This document shows, one piece after another, positions 15,485 through 32,173 of a DNA stretch of 64,000 nucleotides. The translations under genes were made by a program, and so were the position numbers. Positions within the stretch are counted from its first letter, which is position 1, and every line of letters starts with the position of its first letter. Source of the stretch: Sphaerisporangium sp. (lineage in GTDB: Bacteria; Actinomycetota; Actinomycetes; Streptosporangiales; Streptosporangiaceae); assembly GCA_025964675.1 (NCBI GenBank), contig JAOPYI010000124.1, forward strand, positions 1 to 64,000, read 5' to 3'. The notes under the pieces are model-generated. The model was not told the DNA's origin. It saw nothing but the letters and a program-made list of their open reading frames with translations, and did not search any database.

Positions 15485-16033
15485 TTACTCTCGGCGCGCG
15501 CCCTCCGGCCAGATGACGTGGACCCTGATGCCGCGCTCGCGGGCCTCGGCGACGACATCGGCGGTGCCGCCGTAGCCGCGCGCGGGTTCTCCGTCCCAGA
15601 CGGCGCACAGCTCCTCGGCCAGGTCGAGCATGAGACGGCTGCCCTCCATGTGCGACTCGCACGTCGACTGGGCGTAACCGAGCCGGTGGACCTTCGCCGC
15701 GGCCCTCATGAGCGAGTCGTACTCGTCGCGGGCGCCGGCGGGAAGCTCCTCGCGGTACCTCTCGGAGCAGACCACCGCCTCCAGCGTGCCGCCCAGGTCG
15801 ATCACCGCACGCGCGAAGATCTGGTCGGCTCCGTCGGCCAGGCAGGAGACTCCCCTCACCTCGGGGCCGTGCTCCGCCAGGGTCTTCCTGATGGCCGCCT
15901 CGACCAGCATGGCCGTCTCCGAGGGCAGGCCGCGATGACCCGAGACGGCGATGCGGGACGGCGCGTTCGCGGCGTTCGCGGTGGGATGGCGGCGCTCCTC
16001 AGCTACGAGACCCCCACCAGAGCATGTGTTCAC
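15485..16033 (-). CDS. SLOG-like nucleotide-sensing protein (partner of SLATT)
   Basis: A protein of 182 residues with a Rossmann-like, SMF/LOG-related pattern: AVSGHRGL at the first strand, GVSCLADGADQIFARAVIDL with the acidic GADQ turn, then AVVCSERYREEL and a C-terminal WPEGARR. SLOG domains are proposed to bind or process nucleotide-derived ligands in bacterial conflict systems and usually sit beside a SLATT membrane effector, as here. The GTG at 16033 has AGGAGG 9 bases upstream, and the gene overlaps the SLATT gene by 35 bp, so the two are tightly coupled. The exact SLOG subfamily is not certain. Confidence 0.8.
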   Translation of the reverse strand: MNTCSGGGLVAEERRHPTANAANAPSRIAVSGHRGLPSETAMLVEAAIRKTLAEHGPEVRGVSCLADGADQIFARAVIDLGGTLEAVVCSERYREELPAGARDEYDSLMRAAAKVHRLGYAQSTCESHMEGSRLMLDLAEELCAVWDGEPARGYGGTADVVAEARERGIRVHVIWPEGARRE

Positions 16034-16880
16034 GTGAGATGGCCTCCTCGGACTCGTCGACGAAATGCGCCCATTCGGACTCCGTGCGGGGCCATTCCAC
16101 CCGCGACACGATATCTCCCAGTTCCAGTGCCGCTATGGAATAGGAAGTGGCGAGTTGCTGGTGCTGCCGGGTCTGGAGCCAAGCGATGCCGGCGGCCGCG
16201 ATGGCACCGACAATTCCCGGCAGATCCGCATTTGTCACCTGATTGGCATTGAGGATGGCGGCGATCAGGCCGACGGCCTCCATCCCCGCCAGCGTGACCG
16301 ACCACTGGGCGGCCCGGCGGTCGTGGTGCCTGGCCTTGGCGGTGTACCAGGCGCGCTGGTCGTTGATCCGGCCGGTCATGTAGTGCTGCTTGCGCTCGTC
16401 GAGCGACAGGGCCCTGATGCTTCGCATCATGGCGGTGACCTGCGACTCCTCTTCCACGGGAGGCACAGGTGTGAATCCCCTGATCCCGCCCGTGATCTCG
16501 GAGAACCTGCGCAGCAGGAGGAGGTCGACACCCTCGTCGTTCTCCACGTCCCGGCCGAACGGCTCGCCTCCGACGAGGTAGCGCCACGCGAGCGTCTTCG
16601 CCGACTCCGCGGCCGCCCTCGCCTCGTACCACTGGCGATCGGGTCGTACGGTGAGGAGGTAGACCTCGGTGACCAGCGCCGTGGCGAGCGCGCCCGCCGA
16701 GACCACCGCGGCCGCGTCCACGTGACCGGCGTTGAGGCTGAACGAGCCGAAGATGGCCGCGATCACCAGCGATGTGAGGCGCACGCCGGTCGCCGTCAGC
16801 AGCCGGCGCTGCCCCACGATGGCACCTCGGTCAGCGGCGCGATAGAGCGACGGGAACCCTGTCTCCGGGTTGCTGGCCAT
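15999..16880 (-). CDS. SLATT domain membrane protein (DUF4231-like)
   Basis: A protein of 293 residues. Hydrophobic hairpins lie at about 33-75 (SLVIAAIFGSFSLNAG, then VVSAGALATALVTEVYLL) and at 195-235 (GLIAAILNANQ, then IVGAIAAAGIAWLQ). Between and after them come helices with the SLATT-type stretch YMTGRINDQRAWYTAKARHH. SLATT proteins are predicted pore-forming effectors that respond to a partner sensor, here the overlapping SLOG gene. The start follows a possible TTGACA promoter with no clear ribosome site, so the message may be leaderless. It is divergent from fxsA. Confidence 0.82.
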   Translation of the reverse strand: MASNPETGFPSLYRAADRGAIVGQRRLLTATGVRLTSLVIAAIFGSFSLNAGHVDAAAVVSAGALATALVTEVYLLTVRPDRQWYEARAAAESAKTLAWRYLVGGEPFGRDVENDEGVDLLLLRRFSEITGGIRGFTPVPPVEEESQVTAMMRSIRALSLDERKQHYMTGRINDQRAWYTAKARHHDRRAAQWSVTLAGMEAVGLIAAILNANQVTNADLPGIVGAIAAAGIAWLQTRQHQQLATSYSIAALELGDIVSRVEWPRTESEWAHFVDESEEAISREHMLWWGSRS

Positions 16881-16884
16881 TCAT

Positions 16885-16915
16885 TTACTGGAACCGCTGA
16901 TTCGCACCGTGTCAA
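16885..16915 (-). promoter_or_regulatory. Possible promoter of the SLATT-SLOG cassette
   Basis: A perfect TTGACA (-35) at 16915-16910 is followed after 17-19 bp by a weak -10 region (TCCAGTAA). Transcription would begin at or next to the SLATT start codon at 16880. Confidence 0.45.
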
Positions 16916-17163
16916 GGGCCACGATATAGGCCGTGACATCGGGCCTCGATCGGAATTCCCAAACCCGACCTATTCTATAACTACCGCACCCCACGCCCCT
17001 TTGGGCACATGTCGCCAGAGTCTGGTAAATCCGAAATATCGTGAGCGGATAATCATGGCAGCGCCGACCCACCGGCAGCCGTGATGATGCCCTTCATCAG
17101 CCGCACCACTACCATCCAAAGCTCTCCTTGCCGACATTACGGACAAGTAGTGCCCAGACTGCC

Positions 17164-17191
17164 CAATAGGCTCACTTAACGGGCAATAGGC
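17164..17191. repeat. Direct repeat CAATAGGC in the SLATT-fxsA divergent region
   Basis: CAATAGGC occurs at 17164-17171 and again at 17184-17191, exactly 20 bp apart, with a degenerate third element (CAATGTAGG) directly after. The surrounding 554-bp intergenic region (16881-17434) is AT-richer than its neighbours and contains no gene I can support. The repeat could be a regulator site. Confidence 0.5.
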
Positions 17192-17367
17192 AATGTAGGG
17201 GATATATACCGCAAAGGCCTATGGCGCGATCTTGGGTCTACCCGTACCACCCCTGACAGTGGTTCAATTCACCGGGATTCCCTGGTGATTGGCAGTGCCA
17301 GCGGACAGGCAGGCGTATCGTTATTTCCCGTGTCGTCGGCGAGTCTGTAAACGATCTGGCACGCTCC

Positions 17368-17396
17368 GTTACTCCACGATTACCTTGTGTTAGATA
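17368..17396 (+). promoter_or_regulatory. Predicted fxsA promoter
   Basis: A good actinomycete -10 box, TAGATA, lies at 17391-17396, with GTTACT 17 bp upstream as a weak -35. Transcription would start about 30 bases before the fxsA ATG. Confidence 0.5.
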
Positions 17397-17434
17397 CAAC
17401 TGAACTGATCAATACTCCGGACTTAGGTGGCACC

Positions 17435-17611
17435 ATGAAGACCGACATCGCCGAGGACTCGAAGCCCGGAGCCACAAGCGACCTCGCCGATGTGCGCGAC
17501 ATCCCGCTCGCGAGCCTCAGCTCGTTCGCTGGAGCTGGGCTGCTCGATCGCAACCACCTCCACATGTCGAACCCCGGTGTCAGCGTCGCGGCCTTCAACT
17601 CATCGATCTAG
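17435..17611 (+). CDS. fxsA: FxsA family RiPP precursor peptide (FxSxx-COOH)
   Basis: A 58-residue peptide with an acidic, soluble leader (KTDIAEDSKPGATSDLADVR, then DIPLASLSSFAGAGLLD) and the extreme C-terminus AAFNSSI. This is the FxSxx-COOH signature of the family. By family knowledge, the Phe and Ser of the F-N-S triad are the residues that the partner radical SAM enzyme FxsB joins into a three-residue cyclophane. The ATG at 17435 has AGGTGG just upstream. The stop lies 9 bp before fxsB, so the two are co-transcribed. Confidence 0.9.
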   Translation: MKTDIAEDSKPGATSDLADVRDIPLASLSSFAGAGLLDRNHLHMSNPGVSVAAFNSSI

Positions 17612-17620
17612 CCACCTTCC

Positions 17621-19993
17621 GTGAGTGACCCCGCCCTCCCGTTTCGGCAGTTCGTACTAAAGGTCGCAAGCCGTTGTGACCTGGCCTGTGACCACTGCTA
17701 TGTGTACGAGCACGCCGATCAGAGCTGGCGGGGCCGGCCCACGGTCATGTCCGTCGAGACGATGGCGTGGTCGGCGGCCCGGATCGCCGACCACGCGAAG
17801 CATCATGATCTGTCGCGCGTCGACGTGGTGCTGCATGGCGGCGAGCCGCTGCTGGCCGGTCGCGAGCGCCTCGGCCGCGTCGCCGACGAGCTGACGCGGG
17901 CGCTCGACGGCGTCTGCGATCTCGACCTCAGGATCCACACCAACGGTGTCCTGCTGGACGAGGGTTTCTGCGAGCTTTTCGCGGACCGCGGCATCAAGAT
18001 CGGCATCTCTCTCGACGGCGACCGCGTCGCCAACGACCGGCACCGCCTGTACGCCAGCGGGCGCAGCAGCTACGACAAGGTGATCGGTGCGATCGACCTC
18101 ATCAGAGAGCGGTATCCCCAGCTGTACGCCGGGCTGCTGTGCACGGTCGACGTCGCCAACGACCCCATCGCGGTCTACGAGGCGTTAGGTGAGCTGGAGC
18201 CGCCTCGGGTCGATTTCCTGCTTCCGCACGCCACCTGGGACGAGCCGCCCCCTGGCGGCCCGGGCGCTTACGGAGAGTGGCTCGTACGGATCTTCGACCG
18301 GTGGGTGGCCGACGGCAGGCCGATGACCGTGCGCGTCTTCGAGTCGGCGCTGCGCACTCTCGGCACCCAGGGCAGCCTGACCGAGTCACTCGGGCTGGAA
18401 CCCAGCGACCTGGTAGTGATCGAGACAGACGGATCGTACGAGCAGGCCGACTCCCTCAAGACGGCTTACGACGGCGCCCCGGCCACCGGCTTCACCGTCG
18501 AACGCGACTCCCTCGACGTCGTGGCCCGTCATCCCGGCATCACCGGCCGCCAGACGGGCCTCGCCGGTCTCAGCGACCAATGCCGGTCGTGCCCCGTGGT
18601 GTCCTCGTGCGGCGGCGGTCTCTACGCGCATCGCTACCGCACCGGATCCGGCTTCCTGAACCCCAGTGTCTACTGTGCCGACCTTCTGCGGCTCATCACC
18701 CACATCCGGGGCGCGGTGAGCGCCATGGACACCACGACGCACCGCCTTCCCGACGCGGACTTCGCCACACTGGCCGCGGGCTACGGCGGGGCCGAGGCCG
18801 TCGGCCGCCTCGACGAGGGTCAGCAGAGCCTGCGCCGCACCCTGGTCGCCAGCGTGGGAGGCGCGTCGACGTCCGTCGCGGCCTGGCGCCTGCTCACGTT
18901 GATCGACCGCGAGGCGCGCCCGGTGCTCGACGCGGTGCTCGCGCATCCCTACGTCCGCGTGTGGGCGGTCAAGTGCCTTACGGGCGAGACCGACGACGGC
19001 CACCTGCCGGCGATCACGGCGGCCGCCGCCATCCGCGCCGGCGTTCTGGCGTCTCTGCGGGTGCCGGTCCGCGACGGCGCGCTGCATCTGCCGTCCCTGG
19101 GGCGCCTCGACGTCGGCAAGGTCACCGAGGCGACGGTGCAGACCGCCGGGGGGCGCTTCGCCGTCCACGCAGGGGGGCGCAGCCTGCTTGTTGATCTCGA
19201 AAAGCCGGGTCGTACCCCGGAGTGGCTCCCGGTGCGCTCCGTGGCGGCCCCCGGCTGGACCGTGGCGCTGGACGACGTCGACCTCTACCGCGACTGCCAC
19301 CAGTGGCCCGCCGCCGCGCGCCTGGGGGCCGAGGAGCTGGACCGCTGGGCGGCGATGCTCCAGGAGGCGTGGCACCTGATCGTCCGCGATCACCCGGAGT
19401 ACGCTGCCGGCCTCGCCGCGGGACTTCGCGTCATCATGCCGCTCGCGCCTCCCACCGACGGCTCGGAGGTCAGCTCGACGGCCCGTGACGCGTTCGGCGC
19501 CGTCGCCGCCGCCCTTCCCTCGGACGCGGCATCCCTGGCGTTGCTGTTGATCCATGAGTTCCAGCACGTCAAGCTGGGCGCCGTCCTGGACATCCACAAT
19601 CTGTACGACCCGAAAGACAAGAACCTGTACTACGCCCCCTGGCGTGAGGACCCGCGTCCTCTCGAAGGGCTGCTTCAGGGCACCTACGCCCACCTCGCGG
19701 TCACCGACTTCTGGCGGGTCCGCCGCCTGGTCGACGACGGCGACGCCGCCCGGCGCGCGGCCGTGCAGTTCGCCAGGTGGCGGGCTCAGACCGCCGAGGC
19801 GATCGGCACCCTGGCGTGCTCCGGAGCCCTGACCGAGACCGGGCGGAGGTTCGTCGCCATGATGCGCCGGACGATCTCGCCCTGGCTCGACGAGCCCGTC
19901 CCGGCCGTGGCCGCTACCGAAGCGGAGCGAGCCGCCGCCGCGCACAGAACACGGTGGTCCAGGCAGGGCGCGGACGCCACCGGCCGTCCATAG
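17621..19993 (+). CDS. fxsB: FxsB radical SAM/SPASM peptide maturase fused to an HExxH domain
   Basis: A protein of 790 residues. The radical SAM cluster is Cys19-x3-Cys23-x2-Cys26 (SRCDLACDHCYVYEHADQSW). The SPASM region near residues 320-352 has QCRSCPVVSSCGGG and a later Cys (SVYCADLL). The C-terminal half, from about 380, is the HExxH-type putative peptide-modification domain, with IHEFQH near residue 646. It is predicted to crosslink the FNS motif of FxsA and perhaps cleave or further modify it. The GTG start has no clear ribosome site and probably depends on coupling to fxsA. No frame disruption is seen. Confidence 0.92.
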   Translation: MSDPALPFRQFVLKVASRCDLACDHCYVYEHADQSWRGRPTVMSVETMAWSAARIADHAKHHDLSRVDVVLHGGEPLLAGRERLGRVADELTRALDGVCDLDLRIHTNGVLLDEGFCELFADRGIKIGISLDGDRVANDRHRLYASGRSSYDKVIGAIDLIRERYPQLYAGLLCTVDVANDPIAVYEALGELEPPRVDFLLPHATWDEPPPGGPGAYGEWLVRIFDRWVADGRPMTVRVFESALRTLGTQGSLTESLGLEPSDLVVIETDGSYEQADSLKTAYDGAPATGFTVERDSLDVVARHPGITGRQTGLAGLSDQCRSCPVVSSCGGGLYAHRYRTGSGFLNPSVYCADLLRLITHIRGAVSAMDTTTHRLPDADFATLAAGYGGAEAVGRLDEGQQSLRRTLVASVGGASTSVAAWRLLTLIDREARPVLDAVLAHPYVRVWAVKCLTGETDDGHLPAITAAAAIRAGVLASLRVPVRDGALHLPSLGRLDVGKVTEATVQTAGGRFAVHAGGRSLLVDLEKPGRTPEWLPVRSVAAPGWTVALDDVDLYRDCHQWPAAARLGAEELDRWAAMLQEAWHLIVRDHPEYAAGLAAGLRVIMPLAPPTDGSEVSSTARDAFGAVAAALPSDAASLALLLIHEFQHVKLGAVLDIHNLYDPKDKNLYYAPWREDPRPLEGLLQGTYAHLAVTDFWRVRRLVDDGDAARRAAVQFARWRAQTAEAIGTLACSGALTETGRRFVAMMRRTISPWLDEPVPAVAATEAERAAAAHRTRWSRQGADATGRP

Positions 19994-20100
19994 TCGCGGC
20001 ATACGCCCTTACGGGCCGCCGGCGGCGGCCCGATTCCCGGTTTCCATGCGGGACATAAATCTGGCGGGATGATTTCCTCGCTTTTGATTGCTTGGCGTCA

Positions 20101-20130
20101 TTGTCCGGCCTAGTGTGCGATGTCTAGAGT
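20101..20130 (+). promoter_or_regulatory. Possible internal promoter before fxsC
   Basis: TTGTCC at 20101-20106 and TAGAGT at 20125-20130 are 18 bp apart. If real, transcription starts near 20137. The ATG at 20120 would then be bypassed, favouring the GTG at 20171 as the fxsC start. Confidence 0.4.
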
Positions 20131-20170
20131 CAAGATTCTCGCAGGTTTTGAGCTGGAGGTGCGTCTGCGA

Positions 20171-21457
20171 GTGTCAGATGACACACATGCCGGCCCCTAC
20201 TTCTTTCTCAGCTATGCCCACACCCCCCGGCATGACGCGAACGATCCTTACGATCCGGATCAATGGGTCGAGAAGCTATACACCGATTTGTGCCGACATG
20301 TGATGGTACTGAGCGGGCTTGACCACGGGGCGAAGGCCGGATTCATGGACCGGGAGCTCCACTCCGGCAGCTACTGGCCGGACCGGCTCGCGAAGGGCAT
20401 CGCCACCTGCCGGGTCTTCGTTCCGCTCTACTCCAGGCGCTACTTCGAAAGCGAGCAGTGCGGCAAGGAGTGGACCGCGTTTTCACAGCGCATTCTGTAC
20501 CACCGCGCACGGGGTTCGGAGAGGGTGGAGACAATCATCCCGGCCATTTGGGTGCCGGTTCCCGCGGAAGAGCTCCCCGAAGTGGCGCGTTCCATTCAGT
20601 TCAACCATGCCGGTCTCGGGCCAAGGTATGCCGAACACGGATTTTACGGCATCATGAAACTCCGGCAGTATCGGAGCGCGTACGACATGGCCGTCTACAA
20701 CCTCGCACGGCGCATCGTCGAGGTCGGGCAGTCCACCCGGCTGACCCGCGTCGAGCCTTCTGACTACGAATCACTGGACAGCGCCTTCGGCCCGTACGAC
20801 TCCGGCCGTCCCAACGGCCACCGCCTCAGGGTCACCGTGGTCGCCCCCGACATCGGCGACCTGCCGGAAGGCCGGGGTCCCTACCACTACGGGCACACCC
20901 CTCAAGAATGGAATCCGTACCGGCCCACCGTCGGCAGACCTCTCGCCGAGCACACTGCCGACGTTGTCCAGAACCTCGGCTACCGGCCTGACGTGGGATC
21001 CCTCGACGACCACTTCGACCATGTCCTCGGCGAGGACGCGCCGGCGAGCCCGGGGCTGCTCCTCCTGGACGCCTGGGCCACCACCTCGGACAAGTTCCTC
21101 GAGCCACTGCGACGCCTGGACGAGTCCGGCAAGCCGTGGATCACCGTGATGGTGCCGTGGAACAGAGACGACCAAGAGACCGCCGACGCGGAGCCCCGGC
21201 TACGCGAACGGTTGGAGAGCGCATTGCGGCACAGGCTCGCCGACGGGCAACCCGTGCAGCGGTCCACCGTCAACGGCGGCATCTCCACCTTCGACCAGTT
21301 CTGCAAAGCGGTTCCGGAGATGGCCCGGTCGGCGGTGAAGCACTATCTCCGGCACGCTCCCGTGAATCCGCCCGAGGGGCGCGCGTCCATCGAGCGTCCG
21401 AGGCTGCAAGGTCCCCTGTCCCCGTTCGATGGCAACGACACGGAGGCTCAGCCATGA
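20171..21457 (+). CDS. fxsC: TIR-like protein FxsC
   Basis: A protein of about 428 residues. The N-terminal region is TIR-like (PYFFLSYAHTPRHD as box 1, then FMDRELHSGSYWPDRLAKGI, then VFVPLYSRRYFESEQCGKEW), matching the FxsC family of Fxs loci. The second half (about 220-400) is a separate domain with RLRVTVVAPDIGDLP and SPGLLLLDAWATTSDKFLEP. The start is uncertain: GTG at 20171 has GGAGG 11 bases upstream and gives the usual short lead into the TIR strand, while an ATG at 20120 would add 17 residues. The stop overlaps the next ATG by 4 bp (ATGA). Confidence 0.88.
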   Translation: MSDDTHAGPYFFLSYAHTPRHDANDPYDPDQWVEKLYTDLCRHVMVLSGLDHGAKAGFMDRELHSGSYWPDRLAKGIATCRVFVPLYSRRYFESEQCGKEWTAFSQRILYHRARGSERVETIIPAIWVPVPAEELPEVARSIQFNHAGLGPRYAEHGFYGIMKLRQYRSAYDMAVYNLARRIVEVGQSTRLTRVEPSDYESLDSAFGPYDSGRPNGHRLRVTVVAPDIGDLPEGRGPYHYGHTPQEWNPYRPTVGRPLAEHTADVVQNLGYRPDVGSLDDHFDHVLGEDAPASPGLLLLDAWATTSDKFLEPLRRLDESGKPWITVMVPWNRDDQETADAEPRLRERLESALRHRLADGQPVQRSTVNGGISTFDQFCKAVPEMARSAVKHYLRHAPVNPPEGRASIERPRLQGPLSPFDGNDTEAQP

Positions 21458-24400
21458 GCGACGCTCCCGAGGGCCAGATCATCACGTTCTACTCCTACAA
21501 GGGAGGCACCGGGCGCACGATGGCCCTCGCCAACACGGCGTGGATCCTCGCGAGCAACGGCAAGAAGGTGCTCATCCTCGACTGGGACCTCGAATCACCC
21601 GGTCTGCACAAGTTCTTCCACCCCTTCCTGGACACCAACACCATCGGCGCGACCGCCGGCGTCATCGATATGATCAACGAATACTCCCTAGCGACGCTTC
21701 GTTCCGAGCCGCGCCCGGGCGACTGGCATCTCGACTACGCCAAAGTGCAACGAAACGCCGTGTCACTCGACTGGAACGACTTCCCGGACAACGGCACGCT
21801 CGACTTCATCTCCGCCGGCCGCCAGAACCGCGACTACGCCTCGCTGGTGTCGGCCTTCGACTGGGACAACTTCTACACGCGGCTGGGCGGCGGCCAGTTC
21901 TTCGACGCGCTGCGCGCCGACATGAAGCGCCACTATGACTACATCCTCATTGACAGCCGCACCGGCTTGAGCGACATCGCCGACATCTGCACCGTGCACT
22001 TTCCGGACACCGTCGTCGTGTGCTTCACGTTGAGCGACCAGAGCATCGAAGGCGCCGCCGCCGTCGCCCACCACATCGACAACCGTTACCGCAGCCAGAA
22101 CATCCGGATCCTGCCGGTCCCCATGCGCATCGACGACGGCGAGAAGGAAAAGCTGGACGCGGGGCGGGACCTGGCCAAACGCCGGTTCGACAACTTTCCC
22201 CAAGGCATGAGCGGCGACCAGCTACGCCATTACTGGGGCGCCGTCGAGATCCCGTACAAGCCCTTCTACGCCTTCGAGGAGACCCTCGCCGCCTTCGGTG
22301 ACGCGCCCGGATCGCCCACCTCTCTCCTGGCGGCGTTCGAGCGGCTCGTCAGCATGATCACGCAGGGCGAGATCGCCGCGATGCCCTCGCTGCGGGAGGA
22401 CCTTCGCGTGCGCGTCCGGGATGACTTCGTCCGCCGGCCCGCCACCGTCCCAGCGGACGCGCTTCTGAGCTACGTGGCCGAGGACCGCATGTGGGCCGAC
22501 TGGATCGCCTCCGTGCTGGAGCGGGCAGGATGCCGCGTGGTGCAGCACAACGAGGGTCCGTCGGAGAAGGCACAGGGCTTCAGCCACACCATCGCCATCG
22601 TCTCCGCCGCCTACCTGCGCTCAGCGCGATTTCAGGCCCTGTGGAAACCGGCGACGGCGTCCGAGGCCAAGGGCGGCCATCCCAAGCTGGTGTCGGTACG
22701 GGTCGCCGACGTGCGCCTGGCCCCGCCGCTCGGCGAGCGTGCGACCGTCGACCTCACGCGCCTCAACGAGACCCAGGCCACCGAGGCGCTGCTGCGCGCG
22801 CTGGGCCGGCCACTCCCTATGGCCGGTGATCCGGTCGGCCAGGCCGACACCGGCCCGCGCTTCCCCGGCATCCGCCCCCCGGTGTGGAACGTCCCCAACC
22901 GGAACGCCGCCTTCACCGGGCGCAACGCCGTTCTGGAGAGGCTCCGCGACCAGATCGTCGGCGGCAGCAAGACCGTGGTCCTGCCCCAGGCGCTCTACGG
23001 GCTGGGCGGCGTCGGCAAGACGCAGGTGGCCCTGGAGTACGCCCACAGGTTCATGGCCGACTACGACGTGGTCTGGTGGATCGCCGCGGAGCACCTTGAG
23101 CTCATCAATCCCGAGCTGGCCGAGCTGGCCGAAGAGCTCGGCGTGCGGGTCAGCGACAGCGTCGCCGAGGCGGCCAAGGCCGCCCGGGAGGCGCTGCGGA
23201 TGGGAAGGCCCCACTCCCGCTGGCTGCTCATCTTCGACAACGCGGACGACCCCAAGGATCTTGAGCCGTACCTTCCCAGCGGGCTCGGGCACATCCTGAT
23301 CACCTCTCGCAACCCCGCCTGGTCGCGTGTCGCCGACCCGCTCGAGGTGGACGTGTTCACGCGAGAGGAAAGCGTGGAGCACCTGCTCCGGCGCGCGCCG
23401 GGCCTCAACTCCAGCGACGCGGAGAAGGTGGCCTCGGCTCTCGGCGACCTGCCTCTGGCCATCGAGCAGGCCGGGGCGTGGCTGGAGCAGACCGGCATGC
23501 CCCCCGAGCAGTACGTCCGCCTGCTGGACGAGCAGCTGACGGAGATGCTCAAGCTGGGGGAACAGCCGACGGACTATCCCACCCCTGTCGCCGCGACGTG
23601 GAACCTGTCGTTCGAACGCCTCAGGGAGCGTTCACCCGCCTCGGTGCGGCTCCTTGAGCTGCTCGCCTTCTTCGGGCCCGAACCGGTCTCCCTGGACATG
23701 CTCTACTGCGACGCGATGGTGGACTGCCTGGTCGACTATGACGACGCGATGCGGGAGAAGCTCATGCTCGGCCCGGTCATCAGGCAGCTCGGCCGGTTCG
23801 CCCTGGCGCGCGTGGACCAGGCCGACAACTCCATCCAGGTGCACCGGCTGATCCAGGCCGTCGTCAGAGAACGGATGGATGCCGTGCAGAGAGAGACGAC
23901 CGTGCACGACGTGCACCGCATCCTGGTCGCCGCGCGCCCCCGCGTGGGGGACACCGACGATCCGGAGAACTGGCCCCGCTATGACGAGATATGGCCGCAC
24001 CTCGGGCCCTCCCTCGCCGCCGACTGTGACGAGGAGGAGACGCGCAGGCTGCTCATCGACCGGGTGCGCTACCTGTGGAAGCGCGGCGAGTTCGCAGCGA
24101 GCCTGGAGCTCGGCAGGAGGCTCGAGGACGTCTGGAACATCAAGCTGGGAAAGGGCGACCGCCAGACCGTCCACCTCCGCTTCCACGTCGCCAACACCCT
24201 CCGCTCGATGGGAAGGTACGCCGAGGCACACGTGGTGGACACCGAGGTCCTGACCCAGCAGGCCCGTGAGCTGGGCGAATACCATCCTTACACGCTGTTC
24301 ACGGCGGGCGGTCTGGCAGCCGACCTCAGAGCCCTGGGAGAGTACCAGGAGTCCCTGCGAGTGGACAGCCAGACCTACGAGAGGGTCAAGGAGCTGTTCG

Positions 24401-25359
24401 GGGAGGACCATCCCCGCACGCTGATGGCCGCGCACAACCTGGGCGTCAGCCTGAGGCTCGCGGGAAGCTTCACCCGGGCGAGGGAGCTCGACCAGGAGAC
24501 CGTGGACCGCCGCCGCCAGGTCATCGGCGAGATGCACCCCTACACTCTCCACACCACCGCCCACCTCGCGCGAGACCTGCGCGAGCTCGGCCAGCTCGCC
24601 GAGTCGGCTGAGATGACGCGGTCCAACCTGGACCACTACAGCCAGGTGCTCGGCGACGACCTGCTCGACACGCTTCGCACCGCCACCAGCCTCGCCACCT
24701 CCCTGCGCAGGACCGGCGCCGAGATGGAGGCTCGCCAGCTGGCCGAGGAGACCCACGACCGCTACGTCCAGCGCTATGGCACCGGGCATCCGGAGACGCT
24801 CCTGTGCCGCCTGGAGTTCGCCACCTGCCTCGCCACGACCGGCGAGACGACCGCCGCCCACGAACGGGCGAGCGACGTCATGCGCCACTTCGCGGACAGC
24901 CTCGGCCGCGACCACCCGTACACGCTGGCCGCCGCGAACAACATCGCCGCCTACCTGCGGGAGCTGGGCCACCTCACCGAGGCCAAGGATCTCGCGGAGA
25001 CCACCCTTCACGCCCTCGGCCGAAGGGTGGGCGAGGGCCACCCCCTCACGCTCACCTGCGCCATCAACGTGGCGAACTGCCTGGCTGAACTGGGTGACCT
25101 CGAGGCGGCCGAGGTGCTCGACCGGAGCACTCTCGACAGCCTGAGAGGCATCCTCGGTTCTGAGCACCCGGACGCCCTGGTCTGCGAGGCCAACCTCGCG
25201 ATGACCCTGAACGCCCTCGGACGGACGGTCGAGGCGCGCCAGCTCCGCGAGCGAGTGCTGCACGCCATGCGCGACACCCTTGGCGACGACCATCCCCACA
25301 TCGCGGACCTGGCGGCATGGCGCAGGATCGAGCGTGACCTCGAGCCGCAGCTGTGGTGA
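21454..25359 (+). CDS. fxsT: FxsT: MinD/ParA-TIR-like-NB-ARC-TPR protein of the Fxs system
   Basis: A protein of about 1301 residues with four regions. Residues 9-260 are MinD/ParA-like, with a deviant Walker A (YSYKGGTGRT, Lys16) and LILDWDLESPG. Residues about 330-440 are TIR-like (LLSYVAEDRMWADWIASVLE, then IAIVSAAYLRS). From about 480 there is an NB-ARC/STAND ATPase, with LGGVGKT near 515 and WLLIFDNADD near 590. From about 850 to the end there are TPRs of about 42 residues, each with a GxxHPxTL motif. The architecture resembles STAND sensors of immune type. It overlaps fxsC by 4 bp, and its stop abuts the stop of the opposite-strand gene. Confidence 0.9.
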   Translation: MSDAPEGQIITFYSYKGGTGRTMALANTAWILASNGKKVLILDWDLESPGLHKFFHPFLDTNTIGATAGVIDMINEYSLATLRSEPRPGDWHLDYAKVQRNAVSLDWNDFPDNGTLDFISAGRQNRDYASLVSAFDWDNFYTRLGGGQFFDALRADMKRHYDYILIDSRTGLSDIADICTVHFPDTVVVCFTLSDQSIEGAAAVAHHIDNRYRSQNIRILPVPMRIDDGEKEKLDAGRDLAKRRFDNFPQGMSGDQLRHYWGAVEIPYKPFYAFEETLAAFGDAPGSPTSLLAAFERLVSMITQGEIAAMPSLREDLRVRVRDDFVRRPATVPADALLSYVAEDRMWADWIASVLERAGCRVVQHNEGPSEKAQGFSHTIAIVSAAYLRSARFQALWKPATASEAKGGHPKLVSVRVADVRLAPPLGERATVDLTRLNETQATEALLRALGRPLPMAGDPVGQADTGPRFPGIRPPVWNVPNRNAAFTGRNAVLERLRDQIVGGSKTVVLPQALYGLGGVGKTQVALEYAHRFMADYDVVWWIAAEHLELINPELAELAEELGVRVSDSVAEAAKAAREALRMGRPHSRWLLIFDNADDPKDLEPYLPSGLGHILITSRNPAWSRVADPLEVDVFTREESVEHLLRRAPGLNSSDAEKVASALGDLPLAIEQAGAWLEQTGMPPEQYVRLLDEQLTEMLKLGEQPTDYPTPVAATWNLSFERLRERSPASVRLLELLAFFGPEPVSLDMLYCDAMVDCLVDYDDAMREKLMLGPVIRQLGRFALARVDQADNSIQVHRLIQAVVRERMDAVQRETTVHDVHRILVAARPRVGDTDDPENWPRYDEIWPHLGPSLAADCDEEETRRLLIDRVRYLWKRGEFAASLELGRRLEDVWNIKLGKGDRQTVHLRFHVANTLRSMGRYAEAHVVDTEVLTQQARELGEYHPYTLFTAGGLAADLRALGEYQESLRVDSQTYERVKELFGEDHPRTLMAAHNLGVSLRLAGSFTRARELDQETVDRRRQVIGEMHPYTLHTTAHLARDLRELGQLAESAEMTRSNLDHYSQVLGDDLLDTLRTATSLATSLRRTGAEMEARQLAEETHDRYVQRYGTGHPETLLCRLEFATCLATTGETTAAHERASDVMRHFADSLGRDHPYTLAAANNIAAYLRELGHLTEAKDLAETTLHALGRRVGEGHPLTLTCAINVANCLAELGDLEAAEVLDRSTLDSLRGILGSEHPDALVCEANLAMTLNALGRTVEARQLRERVLHAMRDTLGDDHPHIADLAAWRRIERDLEPQLW

Positions 25360-26238
25360 TCAGGCGGCCTGCCCGCCACTGACCAGCCACGGCAGCACGT
25401 CGGGGAGCACGGCGAGGGCGCCGAAGTGGGCCGCGCCGGGCTCCACCCTCATGGTGGCCGTGCGGATGCGCGTGGCGAGCCAGCGCGAGTGGCCGACCGG
25501 GGAGAACCTGTCCTTTTCGCCGTGCCACAGCAGCGTGGGCGCGGTGATGGCAGCCAGGTCGAAGCCCCACGGGCTGCAGAAGGCGATGGCGTCGTCGATC
25601 CAGCCGTCCTCCGAATGGCGCAGCGCCTCGGCGTAGTTCGCCACGAGCATGGCGCGCACGCCCGGGTTGGATACCATCCGGCGGTCGTCTTCGGGGAGCT
25701 CGGCGTACAGCCCGGCGATCAGGCTCGCCGGGTCGGTCCGGATCTCCTGCGCGGCGGGGGCGAGCCAGTCGGCGAAGCGGCTGCGCCCGGCCAGAGCGAT
25801 GGTGTATTCCACGATGTTCGACTCGGTCATGCCACCGAACCAGTCGAGCCCCTCCGCCGCGTGGGGCGCCAGGCCCACCAGCACCGCCACCCGGTTCACG
25901 CGGTCGGGCAGCAGCGCCGCGCAGGCCAGGGCGTGCGGCCCGCCGCCTGACCGGCCCACCACGGAGAAGCGGTCGAGCCCGAGCTTGTCGGCTATCGTCG
26001 CGACGTCGTCCGCCACAGTGGCCACGGACCGCCCGATCAGGCGGTCAGACTCGCCGTAGCCGGGACGGTCGAAAGTGATCAGCCGCACACCGAGCCGGTA
26101 CAGAACCGACCCCCTGGGGCAGGGACCGACCCTGCTTCCCGGTGTGCCGTGAAGCAGGAACACCGGGTCACCCCCCGGCTTCCCTCTTTCCTCGATCGCG
26201 AGTCGTCTGCCATCAGCCGTGCACACGACATCTGTCAA
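25360..26238 (-). CDS. Alpha/beta hydrolase
   Basis: A predicted esterase-like hydrolase of about 292 residues. Visible are the oxyanion-hole HGTPGS, the nucleophile elbow VVGRSGGGPHAL with Ser as nucleophile, and a C-terminal His (AAHFG). The TTG at 26238 is preferred because GGGAGG lies 7 bases upstream and the protein then begins at the typical first strand. An ATG at 26277 is possible but has its purine tract directly against it. Its stop directly abuts the fxsT stop on the other strand. It lies 131 bp downstream of the oxidoreductase gene on the same strand. Confidence 0.87.
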   Translation of the reverse strand: MTDVVCTADGRRLAIEERGKPGGDPVFLLHGTPGSRVGPCPRGSVLYRLGVRLITFDRPGYGESDRLIGRSVATVADDVATIADKLGLDRFSVVGRSGGGPHALACAALLPDRVNRVAVLVGLAPHAAEGLDWFGGMTESNIVEYTIALAGRSRFADWLAPAAQEIRTDPASLIAGLYAELPEDDRRMVSNPGVRAMLVANYAEALRHSEDGWIDDAIAFCSPWGFDLAAITAPTLLWHGEKDRFSPVGHSRWLATRIRTATMRVEPGAAHFGALAVLPDVLPWLVSGGQAA

Positions 26239-26369
26239 CTGCCCGCCTCCCGTGGCCGAGGTACGCCCATCAAACATCCTCTTATTCCGCCCGCCCGCAA
26301 AGAGGAATTGCCTGATTTTCGACTTACAGCGATTTTCGCCCAAAGACAAGATCTTATGTGGCGGTTGTG

Positions 26370-28004
26370 CTAGTCCTTAAGGGAATGGTCGGCGAGGATG
26401 GCCATGGCGGCGTTCTTGCCGTTGAGGGCGATGACGCTGCCGCCCGGGTGGGTGGCGGCTCCGCAGAGGTAGAGGCCGGGCACGGGGGTGCGGGGGGTGA
26501 GGCGGTTCTCCCACATCTGGTCGGGGCGGACCTCTCCCTGGAAGATGTGCCCGCCGGTCAGCCCCACCCGCTTCTCGATGTCGGGGGCGCCCAGGACCTC
26601 GTAGCTCTCCAGGCAGTCGGCGAAGCCGGGCGCGAACCGCTCGATCAGGTCGATGAACTGCCGGGCGACCTCCTCCCTGCGGCTCTCCCAGCCCCCGTTG
26701 AGGCCGTACGGCGCGTACTGCCCGAACACGCTCATCAGGTGCCTGCCCTCGGGCGCGGGCGACGGGTCGTGCCCGGTCTGGACGTAGATCTCCCCGAAAC
26801 CGACCGCCGGCTCGCCCGCGTCGCATCGCTCGAACGCCTTCTGCGCGTCCTCCAGCCCCGTGGTCGTATTGACCACGCCTCGGGCCATGAACGTCTCTCC
26901 CGGGGCCGCCGTCCAGGAGGGCAACCGCCGGAGCGCCGCGTTGAACTTCACCACGGGGCTGCGGATGTCCCAGTCGTCGATCCGCCGGCGGTAGGCCTCG
27001 GGCACGGAGCCGGTGGGCAGCATCGTCATGAGCCGCTTGGGGTCGGCGTTGCCCACGATGGTGGCCGCGGCGATGAACGTGCCGTCCTCCAGGCGGACCC
27101 CCTCCCCCGGCAGCACCTCCCCGACCGGCACGCCGGTGGCCAGTACGGCTCCCGCTTCGCGCGCGGCCTCGGCGATGGCGAAGCTGACCATGCCCATGCC
27201 GCCGCGAACGTAGCCCCAGGCGGCGCCCTCCCCGTTGACCTCCCCGGCGAAGTGCATGAACTTGACGGCGGCGGTGCCCGGGTCCTTGGGGCCGGCGTAC
27301 GTGCCGATGATGCCCTGCCCGAAGAGAGCGTCCTTGAGCCGCTGGTCGCTCACGAACTCGTCCAGCACGTCCGCGATCGAGGCGTGGAAGAGCACGTCCG
27401 TCATGAGGCCCTCGCCGCCGAGGAGCTCCTCCAGCTCGGCTCTTGATGGGGAATCGCCGGCCCAGGTGTCCCTCGTGCCCTTGCGCAGCCGGATCCGGAT
27501 CTGGTCGAACAGATCCTCATAAGCGAAATATCCGTCAATGTCCTTCTGGGACAGGCCCAGTCCGCGCAGCCCGGCCAGCGTCTTGTCGTGGTCCATCCAC
27601 TGCGCGAACACCGTGCCGTCGTCGAACGGCACCCAGAGCTGCGGGTCGGCGAGGTACACCTCAAGACCCCGCTCGTGCAGCCGGAGGTCGCGGATCACGG
27701 TCTCGTCGAGCAGCCCGATGACGTACGCGCAAGGGCTGACGACGTACCGCTGGTCGGGGAAGGGGCGGTCGAGCGTGGCCGCCCCGCCGAGGCGCTCGCG
27801 GGCCTCGAGGACCAGGACGGACCTACCCGCCCGCGCGAGGTAGGCCGCGCAGGTCAGCCCGTTGTGCCCGCCCCCCACCACGATCACGTCCCAGCGCCGC
27901 GACGCCAGGTCCGACACCGGCTCGGGAAGTCCCACCACGCCCAGCCGCTCAGCGATCTCGTTCATGTCCCGCCCGCCCCTTTTCACTCTCAGACCGGCCT
28001 CCAT
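26370..28004 (-). CDS. Phytoene desaturase-like NAD(P)/FAD-dependent oxidoreductase
   Basis: A protein of about 544 residues. The N-terminal dinucleotide fold is DVIVVGGGHNGLTCAAYLAR followed by VLVLEARERLGGAA. The C-terminal FAD motif is TPVPGLYLCGAATHPGGSVI. This is the CrtI-like family to which PYROXD2 also belongs. No other carotenoid genes lie nearby, so carotenoid synthesis is not supported. I placed the start at the ATG at 28004, where GGAGG lies 7 bases upstream; an ATG at 28022 lacks a ribosome site. A perfect 20-bp inverted-repeat element lies just upstream. Confidence 0.88.
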   Translation of the reverse strand: MEAGLRVKRGGRDMNEIAERLGVVGLPEPVSDLASRRWDVIVVGGGHNGLTCAAYLARAGRSVLVLEARERLGGAATLDRPFPDQRYVVSPCAYVIGLLDETVIRDLRLHERGLEVYLADPQLWVPFDDGTVFAQWMDHDKTLAGLRGLGLSQKDIDGYFAYEDLFDQIRIRLRKGTRDTWAGDSPSRAELEELLGGEGLMTDVLFHASIADVLDEFVSDQRLKDALFGQGIIGTYAGPKDPGTAAVKFMHFAGEVNGEGAAWGYVRGGMGMVSFAIAEAAREAGAVLATGVPVGEVLPGEGVRLEDGTFIAAATIVGNADPKRLMTMLPTGSVPEAYRRRIDDWDIRSPVVKFNAALRRLPSWTAAPGETFMARGVVNTTTGLEDAQKAFERCDAGEPAVGFGEIYVQTGHDPSPAPEGRHLMSVFGQYAPYGLNGGWESRREEVARQFIDLIERFAPGFADCLESYEVLGAPDIEKRVGLTGGHIFQGEVRPDQMWENRLTPRTPVPGLYLCGAATHPGGSVIALNGKNAAMAILADHSLKD

Positions 28005-29914: not shown

Positions 29915-32173
29915 GTGGCCTCAATATCGCAATTGATTAGAAATCTCCTGGATCGTCCGGGAAGCGCCAACCTTGGCCCTTTTCAACGCGTGGCCACGCA
30001 GGCGGGCGCCCATGAAGACCGTCTCAGGGCACTGACCGATCTTCCCCGGCCCCGTATGGACGACCTGGCCGGGTTCTGCGCCATCGCTCGTGAGGCCGCG
30101 CGCCGCACGCTCGACATGCGGCCCTTCGACGTGCAGCTCGTCGGCGCCCTCGCCCTGCTGTCCGGGCATGTGGCCGAGATGGCCACCGGCGAGGGCAAGA
30201 CCCTGTCCGGGGCGATCGCCGCCTGCGGTCACGCCCTGCGCGGCAAGCGCGTCCACGTGATCTCGGTGAACGACTACCTGGCCCGGCGCGACGCCGAGTG
30301 GATGGGGCCGCTCTACGAGGCTCTGGGGGTGTCCGTGGGGTGGATCGGCCAGTCCTCGACGCCCGAGGAGCGCAGGCAGGCGTACGCCAAGGACGTGATG
30401 TACGCCTCCGTCAGCGAGGTCGGCTTCGACGTGCTGCGCGACCGCATCGCGACGGACCCCGGCGACGTCATCGTCCCCGAGCCGTCCGTCGCGCTCATCG
30501 ACGAGGCGGACTCCGTGCTGGTGGACGAGGCACGCGTCCCGCTGGTCCTGGCCGGAGCCGCCGACCCTGGGGCGGACGCTCCCGAGACGGCCGAGCTGGT
30601 CCGGCGGCTGTCCCGCGGCTACCACTACGAGCTGGACGACCAGGGCCGCAACGTCTTCCTCACCACCAAGGGCACCGACGCCGTCGAGAAGGCCCTGGGC
30701 GGCATCAACCTGTACGAGACTCCGGACGCGCTGACCCGGATCAACCTCGCCCTGCACGCTCACGCTCTGCTGACCCGCGACGTGGACTACCTCGTCCGTG
30801 ACGGCCGAATCCACCTGGTCAGCCAGTCGCGCGGCCGGGTGGCGACCCTCCAGCGCTGGCCGGACGGGCTCCAGGCGGCGGTCGAGGCCAAGGAGGCGCT
30901 CCCGGCGAGCGAGACCGGCGAGATCCTTGACTCGATCACCATCCAAGGCCTCATCCGCCGATACCCCGAAATATGCGGCATGACCGGTACTGCGGTGGCG
31001 GTCGAGGAGCAGCTCAGGGAGTTCTACAGCCTGAAGGTCGCGGTCGTCCCCCCGAACAAGCCGTGCGTACGCGTCGACGAGCCCGACCGCGTCTTCCGCA
31101 CGGTCGCCGACAAGGAGCGGGCGCTGGTCGACGAGATCGCCGCCATGCACGCCACGGGCCGCCCGATCCTGATCGGCACCCTCGACGTGTCCGAGTCCGA
31201 GCGCCTGGCGGACGATCTCCGGGTGAGGGGTCTCGACTGCGTCGTGCTCAACGCGAAGAACGACGCGGAGGAGGCCGAGATCATCGCCCGGGCCGGCGCG
31301 CGAGCGGCGATCACCGTGTCCACACAGATCGCCGGCCGGGGCACCGACATCCGCCTCGGCGAGGGGGTCGCCGAGCTCGGCGGCCTGTACGTCATCGGCT
31401 CGGGCCGGCACGCGAGCAGCCGCCTGGACGACCAGCTCAGGGGCCGCGCGGGCCGCCAGGGGGACCCCGGAGGCTCGGTGTTCCTCGTGAGCCTCGAAGA
31501 CGATTTGATCACGCAGTACGCCCCCGACGAGGCCCTTCCCGCCGCCGGGGACGACGGCGTCGTCCGCCACAAGCGGGCGGGCTACGTCGTCGGCCACGCC
31601 CAGCGGGTCGCAGAAGGCACCCACCTGGAGATCCACCGCAACACCTGGCGCTACACCCGGCTCCTGGAGCGGCAGCGCGCCCTGGTCCTGGAGCAGCGCG
31701 ACAAGGTCCTGCGGGGCGACTCCGCCACTGACGCCCTGGTCGGTGCCGCGCCGGAGCGCTGGAGCGAGCTGGCCGCGCGGGTGGGCGAGCCCGTGCTCCA
31801 AGAGGTCGCACGGGAGATCGTCCTGTTCCACCTCGACCGCTGCTGGACCGAGCACCTCGGCTTCATGTCCGATGTGCGCGAGGGCATCCACCTGCGGGCG
31901 CTCGGGCACAGGCTCAAGCCCATCGACGAGTTCCACCGCGAGGGGGTCGTCGCGTACCGGCGCCTGCTGGAGGAGGTCGAGCGCCGGTCGGTCGAGACGT
32001 TCGAGACGGCGTCGATCACCGCGGACGGGCTCGACCCGCTGGAGAGCGGCCTCAAGCGTCCCACGGCCACCTGGACCTACCTCGTGCAGGACAACCCCTT
32101 CGGCAACGCCTTCGACCGCATCCTGAAGCGCCTCACCACCCCGAGAACGAAGCGCCGCCAAGAGGTGGATTAG
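29915..32173 (+). CDS. secA2: Accessory Sec system translocase SecA2
   Basis: A protein of 752 residues, shorter than housekeeping SecA (usually about 900-950) and without its C-terminal zinc-binding tail. Walker A is ATGEGKT at 90-96, the DEAD box is ALIDEADSVLVDEARVPLVL, and motif VI is QLRGRAGRQGDPG. It is predicted to drive export of a small set of proteins through the standard SecYEG channel, as known for actinobacterial SecA2. The GTG start has GGAGGA 4 bases upstream. No SecY2 or dedicated substrate gene lies beside it. The upstream gene is an MFS exporter 48 bp away. Confidence 0.9.
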   Translation: MASISQLIRNLLDRPGSANLGPFQRVATQAGAHEDRLRALTDLPRPRMDDLAGFCAIAREAARRTLDMRPFDVQLVGALALLSGHVAEMATGEGKTLSGAIAACGHALRGKRVHVISVNDYLARRDAEWMGPLYEALGVSVGWIGQSSTPEERRQAYAKDVMYASVSEVGFDVLRDRIATDPGDVIVPEPSVALIDEADSVLVDEARVPLVLAGAADPGADAPETAELVRRLSRGYHYELDDQGRNVFLTTKGTDAVEKALGGINLYETPDALTRINLALHAHALLTRDVDYLVRDGRIHLVSQSRGRVATLQRWPDGLQAAVEAKEALPASETGEILDSITIQGLIRRYPEICGMTGTAVAVEEQLREFYSLKVAVVPPNKPCVRVDEPDRVFRTVADKERALVDEIAAMHATGRPILIGTLDVSESERLADDLRVRGLDCVVLNAKNDAEEAEIIARAGARAAITVSTQIAGRGTDIRLGEGVAELGGLYVIGSGRHASSRLDDQLRGRAGRQGDPGGSVFLVSLEDDLITQYAPDEALPAAGDDGVVRHKRAGYVVGHAQRVAEGTHLEIHRNTWRYTRLLERQRALVLEQRDKVLRGDSATDALVGAAPERWSELAARVGEPVLQEVAREIVLFHLDRCWTEHLGFMSDVREGIHLRALGHRLKPIDEFHREGVVAYRRLLEEVERRSVETFETASITADGLDPLESGLKRPTATWTYLVQDNPFGNAFDRILKRLTTPRTKRRQEVD

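What the first reader, a model, noticed from the sequence alone, without database searches (positions are those of the whole stretch)
17391..25359. Complete FxsA-FxsB-FxsC-FxsT locus for a cyclophane-type modified peptide
All four parts are intact and tightly packed: the gaps or overlaps are 9 bp (A-B), about 180 bp (B-C) and a 4-bp overlap (C-T). Family knowledge says FxsB makes a three-residue Phe-x-Ser cyclophane in FxsA, but the biological job of the peptide and of the TIR-like and STAND partners is not settled. A radical-SAM peptide tied to immune-type domains could be a defence or signalling system.
Basis: partly seen in the sequence, partly recalled or inferred. Interest (0 to 1): 0.87.

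Follow-up and report, generated by a model that had tools for sequence, protein, structure and literature searches.

The report
Cross-linked peptide wired to immune-type proteins
An actinobacterial genome carries an intact, already named set of genes that should make a small cross-linked peptide and ties it to immune-receptor-like proteins; this copy also sits beside a nucleotide-sensor-like gene and a membrane-effector-like gene, which suggests a testable way for the set to act in cell defence.

Summary
It is a known kind: NCBIfam has models for all four parts, and Kaur et al. 2020 (PMC7159879) described standalone actinobacterial FxSxx systems and proposed a conflict role.

FxsB is a fusion (FxsBH) with an intact HExxH peptide beta-hydroxylase domain. 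FxsC is a TIR domain with its Glu in 74 of 74 aligned proteins. FxsT carries a MinD-like domain (P-loop Lys replaced by Arg, 72 of 72) and a degenerate TIR before NB-ARC and TPR. An alpha/beta-hydrolase lies convergently after fxsT in 66 of 72 complete loci. A SLOG and a SLATT gene lie upstream; strong SLATT_3 genes are rare (12 copies in 150 genomes), yet 7 of 12 sit beside fxsBH. The precursor ends VAAF[N/Q]S almost invariably while its leader diverges; four loci have Ala for Ser.

Best reading: an intracellular, peptide-regulated NLR-like conflict system in which FxsT activates the FxsC TIR, whose NAD-derived product could act through SLOG-SLATT. Chemistry and function were not tested. The core is known; the SLOG-SLATT and hydrolase links are a variant I did not find described.

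The parts
15485..16033 (-). SLOG-fold protein, 182 aa, overlapping the SLATT gene by 35 bp
   Evidence: AlphaFold2 model pLDDT 87.3; Z 18.6, 2.5 A over 154 residues to YpsA 2nx2, with DprA, LOG, ThsA and TRPM further down; weak Pfam hits among 15 relatives: DprA 6, YAcAr 5, YpsA 3, none of them to the window copy beyond DprA at E 0.19; found with SLATT in 12 of 14 loci with an upstream SLATT
15999..16880 (-). SLATT_3 + SLATT_1 predicted two-TM effector protein, 293 aa
   Evidence: PF18184 149.6 bits, PF18181 122.9 bits; NF033610 162.4 bits; found in 30 of 81 FxsBH loci in three arrangements
17435..17611 (+). fxsA precursor peptide, 58 aa
   Evidence: TIGR04268 17.6 bits, below the cut-off of 28; C-terminus shared with the other loci
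17594..17608 (+). FxSxx core, FNSSI, at the C-terminus (predicted Phe54-Ser56 cross-link)
   Evidence: conserved in relatives
17621..19993 (+). fxsBH: radical SAM/SPASM cyclophane maturase fused to an aKG-HExxH peptide beta-hydroxylase domain
   Evidence: TIGR04269 residues 8-363; TIGR04267 188.2 bits, residues 580-748; three rSAM Cys in 81 of 81; PDB 9gm3 and 22nu
19553..19567 (+). HEFQH metal motif of the hydroxylase domain
   Evidence: 81 of 81 aligned FxsB proteins, window included, have HEFQH
20171..21457 (+). fxsC: TIR domain plus conserved C-terminal domain
   Evidence: NF040588 and TIGR04276; model residues 5-189 match TIR structures, best Z 12.5
20468..20470 (+). Glu100 codon of FxsC (E104 in the numbering), predicted TIR catalytic Glu
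   Evidence: 74 of 74 aligned proteins, window included; aligned with a Glu of the flax L7 TIR in a weak hit, E 0.38; that this Glu is the catalytic one in L7 is recalled
21454..25359 (+). fxsT: MinD-like - degenerate TIR - NB-ARC (STAND) - TPR
   Evidence: NF040586 1064 bits, NF047398 152 bits; TIR_2, TPR over cut-off, NB-ARC 22.7 bits just under its cut-off of 23.5
21475..22077 (+). MinD-like domain of FxsT, motif KGGTGRT
   Evidence: Arg in place of the P-loop Lys in 72 of 72
22465..22791 (+). degenerate TIR of FxsT
   Evidence: TIR_2 50.4 bits; no conserved Glu at the catalytic position
22999..23022 (+). NB-ARC P-loop GLGGVGKT
   Evidence: Lys in 72 of 72
25360..26349 (-). alpha/beta-hydrolase, convergent with fxsT
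   Evidence: PF00561 83.8 bits; on the minus strand after fxsT in 66 of 72 complete loci, within 200 bp in 52 of them

Best explanation
The locus is a peptide-regulated, NLR-like conflict (immune or abortive) system that works inside the cell. FxsBH joins Phe54 to Ser56 at the C-terminus of FxsA and probably also hydroxylates the peptide. The product stays inside and serves as a fixed ligand or brake for FxsT, a STAND ATPase with a TPR sensor. When triggered, FxsT assembles, and its degenerate TIR and MinD-like arm gather the TIR enzyme FxsC. FxsC then cleaves NAD; either NAD loss itself, or an ADP-ribose-type product sensed by the neighbouring SLOG protein and passed to the SLATT membrane protein, stops growth or kills the cell. 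Shown here: gene content, domains, motif conservation, gene linkage. Inferred from named relatives: cross-link, hydroxylation, NAD cleavage. Inferred only: FxsA as ligand or brake of FxsT, SLOG-SLATT as the output, phage or other attack as the trigger.
For: Radical SAM Cys and HEFQH intact in 81 of 81; a HExxH domain fused to a radical SAM enzyme is reported to hydroxylate after cyclophane formation (PMC12636437, introduction). The FxsC model is a TIR (Z 12.5 to SPARTA, 11.1 to RUN1, 10.6 to SARM1) with Glu and Trp of CGxEW in 74 of 74. FxsT with the MinD arm has an FxsC neighbour in 82 of 82 distinct cases, FxsT without it in 1 of 44, which ties the arm to FxsC; the loci were chosen, not random. 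FxsC domains form the end of long proteins beside VMAP and AAA genes on two plasmids, the conflict systems of PMC7159879. SLATT_3: 12 copies above 100 bits in 150 genomes; 7 (6 of 11 without the window) lie under 1 kb from the FxsB domain match, and these are all the strong copies in genomes with FxsC. No transporter is among the families found in 20 or more of 81 loci (two of those families named by my own reading). The FxsA core is near-fixed while its leader varies (0.757 against 0.172 mean pairwise identity).
Against: No phenotype, mass or NADase data. PADLOC gave no matching defence system for the four proteins. SLATT was not found in 51 of 81 loci and SLOG not in 66 of 81 (some loci are cut by contig ends), so that output arm cannot be general. 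The 16 downstream SLATT cases share one Kitasatospora-type arrangement (two of the records are titled Streptomyces and Saccharothrix), so independent gains are few. One weaker over-cut-off SLATT_3 copy (G093, 31.1 bits) is in a genome with FxsC but on another contig. No FxsC in phage records; the two plasmid hits opened, of five, are not standalone fxs loci. A conserved peptide core also fits an extracellular signal. An M20-peptidase-like family (my reading) lies upstream in 9 of 81 loci.
Confidence: 0.42

Rival explanations
1. Regulatory or developmental switch: the modified peptide and FxsT control gene expression or differentiation, with the TIR as a scaffold rather than an enzyme.
For: FxsT shares its NB-ARC stretch weakly with the regulator AfsR (NF053617, 39.5 bits against a cut-off of 1430). 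The core peptide is conserved rather than diversifying. The FxsT family is common in the order (over cut-off in 128 of 150 genomes).
Against: No DNA-binding domain is among the Pfam hits of the four proteins. The TIR Glu is invariant. FxsC is patchy: over cut-off in 28 of 150 genomes, and in 2 of the 4 sampled genomes of the window's genus.
Confidence: 0.2
2. Secreted peptide (toxin or pheromone), with FxsC and FxsT as immunity or response proteins.
For: The product class is a RiPP; PMC7159879 allows a peptide toxin or signal.
Against: No transporter is among the families present in 20 or more of 81 loci. The alpha/beta-hydrolase stays with FxsC-FxsT where FxsB is missing (L131, L132), so it does not look like the leader protease; an M20-peptidase-like family occurs in only 9 loci. 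The core hardly varies.
Confidence: 0.15
3. The FxsA-derived peptide is a brake (antitoxin-like guard): it holds FxsT off, and loss of maturation releases FxsC.
For: FxsT is the shared hub: FxsC-FxsT occur without FxsB in three fetched places (L131, L132, and L135 where the FxsC hit is weak), and FxsB with FxsT but no FxsC in the type II loci.
Against: The same modular facts fit activation equally well. FxsC-FxsT without FxsB would need another brake.
Confidence: 0.18
4. SLOG-SLATT and the fxs genes are separate conflict systems that sit together only because they share a genomic neighbourhood.
For: SLATT is found in 30 of 81 loci only; SLOG occurs without SLATT in L030, L039 and L078.
Against: 7 of 12 strong SLATT_3 copies in 150 genomes lie under 1 kb from the FxsB match, in more than one orientation; none of 38 type II loci has one, though those stretches are shorter.
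Confidence: 0.3

Closest known systems
FxSxx-COOH peptide-processing systems of Kaur et al. 2020 (PMC7159879; section 24 read, passages)
   Same: FxSxx peptide, radical SAM/SPASM enzyme, zincin-like domain, AP-ATPase with TPR and an inactive MinD/ParA-like domain, standalone in actinobacteria; conflict role proposed
   Different: The paper reads the zincin-like domain as a peptidase; the parts I saw do not mention FxsC by name, SLATT or SLOG beside the FxSxx systems, or an alpha/beta-hydrolase with them
Triceptide maturases (MscB, OscB, XncB; passages of PMC11002830)
   Same: Radical SAM/SPASM cyclophane-forming enzyme; MscB joins Phe C4 to Ser C-beta
   Different: Here the enzyme is fused to HExxH and encoded with TIR and STAND proteins; that MscB belongs to the FxsB family is recalled
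ChlBH-type rSAM-HExxH enzymes (PMC12636437, first of six parts read; PDB 9gm3, 22nu, 8s5f)
   Same: rSAM half 282 bits to the ChlB radical SAM domain; HExxH half 283 bits to 22nu
   Different: ChlH itself only 26-28 bits; the reported substrate residues (Asp, His) are not in the last eight residues of FxsA
Thoeris (TIR signal read by a SLOG protein; recalled; ThsA structures listed)
   Same: A TIR protein near a SLOG protein
   Different: SLOG is a separate small protein beside SLATT; peptide and STAND genes added; no Thoeris model among the PADLOC hits
VMAP/MoxR-vWA ternary systems (PMC7159879)
   Same: FxsC-type TIR module is shared (L129, L130); TIR or other nucleotide-related effectors with SLATT are reported there for GTPase-centred systems
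   Different: No MoxR, vWA or VMAP domain among the 10 neighbouring window genes scanned

Membership tests
FxSxx-COOH (Fxs) system | precursor ending in FxSxx beside FxsB | tested here: met
   ends FNSSI, 9 bp before fxsB; but TIGR04268 17.6 bits, below 28
FxSxx-COOH (Fxs) system | FxsB radical SAM/SPASM maturase | tested here: met
   TIGR04269 570.8 bits, cut-off 370
FxSxx-COOH (Fxs) system | FxsC and FxsT partners over cut-off | tested here: met
   NF040588, TIGR04276, NF040586 all over cut-off
FxSxx-COOH (Fxs) system | Phe-Ser cyclophane in the product | not testable with these tools
   needs mass spectrometry or NMR
aKG-HExxH peptide beta-hydroxylase (rSAM-fused) | HExxH domain over cut-off with intact motif | tested here: met
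   TIGR04267 188.2 bits, cut-off 40; HEFQH in 81 of 81; it also scores 188 on NF040587, the inactivated form, below that model's cut-off of 225
NAD-cleaving TIR | TIR fold of FxsC | tested here: met
   TIR_2 42.6 bits, cut-off 28; Z 12.5
NAD-cleaving TIR | catalytic Glu in FxsC | tested here: met
   74 of 74; its equivalence to the catalytic Glu rests on a weak alignment to flax L7, E 0.38
NAD-cleaving TIR | catalytic Glu in the FxsT TIR | tested here: not met
   no conserved Glu; at residue 395 Ala 26, Glu 19 of 72
NAD-cleaving TIR | NAD cleavage | not testable with these tools
   enzyme assay needed
Thoeris | ThsA-type effector fused to SLOG, with ThsB | tested here: not met
   separate SLOG and SLATT genes; no Thoeris model among PADLOC hits
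SLOG-SLATT pair | SLATT domains and adjacent SLOG fold | tested here: met
VMAP/MoxR-vWA ternary system | MoxR AAA, vWA and VMAP genes in the locus | tested here: not met
   none among the four proteins and the 10 neighbouring window genes scanned

The most novel reading that the evidence does not exclude
A ribosomal cyclophane peptide is the dedicated internal ligand (or guard) of a bacterial NLR: FxsT bound to modified FxsA recruits the FxsC TIR, which makes a NAD-derived messenger that the SLOG protein reads and the SLATT membrane protein turns into loss of membrane integrity, a Thoeris-like relay gated by a RiPP.
Probability: 0.17. Interest if true: 0.88.

Novelty: new variant of a known kind. 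Interest (0 to 1): 0.55.

Why it matters
I found no paper that settles what the FxSxx peptide does. The linkage data turn the question into concrete tests: FxsT is the hub shared by a peptide module (FxsA, FxsB, HExxH) and a TIR module (FxsC, MinD-arm FxsT, alpha/beta-hydrolase), and in 30 of 81 loci a SLATT effector gene is near. If a peptide made by radical SAM chemistry controls a bacterial NLR, that would be a new kind of immune regulation and would give a function to a widespread RiPP family.

Tried and rejected
PADLOC scans gave nothing usable. FxsB hit pVip (34.1 bits) and FxsT hit PDC-M28B (84.2 bits); I read these as the shared radical SAM and MinD-like folds. Of eight neighbours, the methyltransferase at 12731 hit mad2 (62.9 bits) and the SLOG gene hit ShosA (15.0 bits). 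Rfam over 16000-26500: no hit. Promoter scan: 0 sites; terminator scan: 1 against 2.5 expected, so the stretch of the B-C gap conserved among four loci is not called a promoter. The fxsA upstream alignment showed no clear element. FxsC in phages: none; in plasmids: 5 records, two opened. A test of whether the Asn/Gln choice in the core co-varies with FxsT was considered and dropped: too few independent switches. The hydroxylated residue could not be inferred.

Counts that changed on checking. The pattern count of precursors gave 78 of 81. Reading the sequences showed one of these (L028) to be a false hit and four loci (L028, L033, L041, L050) to end VAAFQASI; so 77 have Ser and 4 have Ala. That count selects F.S.. 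at the end by construction; the VAA before it and Asn/Gln are not selected. The hydrolase was in 58 loci by clustering and 66 by homology; the second is used. The FxsT table held one duplicate (L106 = L030); removes it: 82 of 82 and 71 of 82 instead of 83 of 83 and 72 of 83. The type II loci were picked as short-FxsB places, but two (L104, L114) have a fused FxsBH of about 840 aa with a short FxsT and no FxsC, so the fusion alone does not mark FxsC systems. Two FxsC frames in the alignment are short (L064, L069). FxsC's C-terminal domain got no fold (only residues 5-189 were covered). The second Foldseek listing of FxsC had only two hits below 0.001, both plant RPP1 with poor overlap.

Literature: ten searches. 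Two papers hold 'FxSxx-COOH'; one is a fungicide paper seen in the listing only, the other is PMC7159879. One search had 51 papers, 20 listed, none relevant by title. The library lacks most subscription papers, so absence from it is weak.


Full report
What is there. The window holds an intact fxsA-fxsB-fxsC-fxsT set on the + strand. FxsA is 58 aa (17435-17611) and ends VAAFNSSI. FxsB (17621-19993) scores 570.8 bits as FxsB and also carries an aKG-HExxH peptide beta-hydroxylase domain at residues 580-748 (188.2 bits), so it is an FxsBH fusion. FxsC starts most likely at GTG 20171 and ends at 21457. FxsT (21454-25359) reads MinD-like, TIR, NB-ARC, TPR. FxsA is below its family cut-off (17.6 against 28 bits).

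Relatives. A scan of genome contigs with FxsB kept the best 80 of 377 relatives; the nearest is from Sphaerisporangium fuscum, 78% identical. Of the window plus these 80, 72 have FxsBH, FxsC and FxsT all recognised by my thresholds; several of the rest are cut by contig ends. In a sample of 150 genomes of the order, FxsB is over cut-off in 92, FxsT in 128 and FxsC in 28, with one more FxsC match at E below 0.001. The 31 best FxsB rows, all with open frames of 726 aa or more, come from 30 genomes, and all 29 FxsC genomes are among these 30; the thirtieth is G070 (read by eye).

Precursor. In all 81 loci a small frame upstream of fxsB ends at the core: 77 end F-x-S-x-x and four end F-Q-A-S-I. 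x is Asn 46, Gln 34, Thr 1. The last eight residues share 0.757 mean pairwise identity against 0.172 for the 32 before them (78 rows, one of them the false L028 row, without L033, L041, L050). Ala at the third position could still be cross-linked through its C-beta: His-Ala cyclophanes are reported for HaaB.

Active sites. The three radical SAM cysteines and HEFQH are in 81 of 81 FxsB proteins. CGxEW of FxsC has Glu and Trp in 74 of 74. FxsT has Arg for the P-loop Lys of its MinD-like domain in 72 of 72, an intact NB-ARC P-loop Lys in 72 of 72, and no conserved Glu in its own TIR (all, window counted). The FxsC model (mean pLDDT 83.7) matches TIR domains over residues 5-189, best Z 12.5, 2.9 A over 137 residues, to the SPARTA TIR.

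Modules. With one duplicate removed, FxsT with the MinD arm has an FxsC neighbour in 82 of 82 cases and FxsT without it in 1 of 44. The loci were chosen as FxsBH or short-FxsB loci, so this is not a random sample. Three places have FxsC and FxsT but no FxsB in the fetched stretch (L131, L132, and L135, where the FxsC hit is weak), and they fit too. The alpha/beta-hydrolase lies near 71 of 82 MinD-arm FxsT genes and 1 of 44 others; in that one (L106) it belongs to a neighbouring full locus. In the 72 complete loci it is on the other strand after fxsT in 66, within 200 bp in 52. It stays in L131 and L132, where FxsB is missing. So FxsT is the hub between a peptide module and a TIR module. Two of 38 type II loci (L104, L114) have a fused FxsBH with a short FxsT and no FxsC, so the fusion is not exclusive to FxsC systems.

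SLOG and SLATT. Divergent from fxsA lie a SLATT_3+SLATT_1 gene and an overlapping SLOG-fold gene (model pLDDT 87.3; Z 18.6 to YpsA). SLATT is found in 30 of 81 loci: upstream on the minus strand in 8, upstream on the plus strand in 6, downstream in 16, the last all of one Kitasatospora-type arrangement. SLOG is found in 15 of 81. In the 150-genome sample SLATT_3 is over cut-off in 13 genomes (14 copies); 12 copies score above 100 bits. Seven of these lie under 1 kb from the FxsB domain match, the window's own among them, and they are all the strong copies in genomes with an FxsC match; in one (G094) FxsC is below its cut-off. The five others are in genomes without FxsC. One weaker copy, in G093, is in a genome with FxsC but on another contig. 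A binomial estimate for 7 of 12 within 5 kb is 4e-18, ignoring shared descent and counting the window in which the pair was first noticed. None of 38 type II loci has SLATT, though those stretches are shorter. PMC7159879 reports that nucleotide-related effectors such as TIR often come with SLATT in GTPase-centred systems, so the logic is known; I did not find it stated for FxSxx systems in the parts I saw.

A further optional gene. In 31 of 81 loci an AAC(3)-like acetyltransferase gene lies between fxsB and fxsC; the example from L050 scores 206.7 bits against a cut-off of 270. The window has none there, and L028 has a decayed copy. It may acetylate the peptide; that is a guess.

FxsC elsewhere. 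Two plasmid records carry FxsC domains at the C-terminal end of long proteins beside VMAP and AAA ATPase genes, that is, in what look like VMAP-type conflict systems. L133 and L134 carry similar fusions of 947-948 aa with no other Pfam domain found.

Mechanism. The best reading is given above. The chemistry rests on relatives, the enzyme role of FxsC on motif and fold, and the link from FxsC to SLOG-SLATT on gene linkage and on the Thoeris precedent, which I recall and did not read here. That this is an Fxs system is near certain; a conflict role is moderately likely; the relay is a low-odds proposal.

Novelty. The four genes are a known kind (NCBIfam names, PMC7159879). What is added is the intact hydroxylase reading, the invariant TIR Glu, the hub role of FxsT, the hydrolase partner and the SLOG-SLATT link.

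Noticed in passing
L034, L050, L052, L066, L067, L071 and others, between fxsB and fxsC (31 of 81 loci): AAC(3)-like acetyltransferase gene inside the fxs locus, not in the window; possibly a further tailoring enzyme for the peptide.
   Followed up: partly
L028 between fxsB and fxsC: Decayed AAC(3)-like gene in a Herbidospora locus, its pieces in different frames.
   Followed up: no
L028, L033, L041, L050 upstream of fxsB: FxsA ends VAAFQASI: the family Ser is Ala, so the cross-link, if made, would be Phe-Ala.
   Followed up: partly
L129:5608-10182, L130:6178-10191 (plasmids); L133:6095-8935; L134:7064-9907: FxsC module at the end of larger proteins without FxsA or FxsB seen; beside VMAP and AAA genes on the two plasmids.
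   Followed up: partly
L131, L132, L135: FxsC-FxsT without any FxsB in the fetched stretch; two of the three keep the alpha/beta-hydrolase.
   Followed up: partly
L104:3955-6486, L114:3838-6357: Fused FxsBH of about 840 aa next to a short FxsT with no FxsC, one of them in a genome of the window's genus (G064).
   Followed up: no
L070, L074, L076, L077, L088: Kitasatospora loci with a second, diverged fxs set; L070 and L088 each show two extra FxsB-like frames of 358-474 aa.
   Followed up: no
L063:12403-13158, L128:6968-7771, L132:8893-9690: An extra single-TIR frame beside FxsC, as if the TIR had been duplicated.
   Followed up: no
L010: The SLATT gene is next to fxsA but no SLOG gene is detected, although the window, L009 and L053 have both.
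   Followed up: no
window 29915-32170 +: A 752-aa SecA homologue downstream of the locus, also near fxs in L009, L010 and L053; possibly an accessory SecA.
   Followed up: no
window 20063-20170: Part of the B-C gap is conserved in four Sphaerisporangium-type loci; fxsC-fxsT may have their own promoter, but the consensus scan does not support it.
   Followed up: partly
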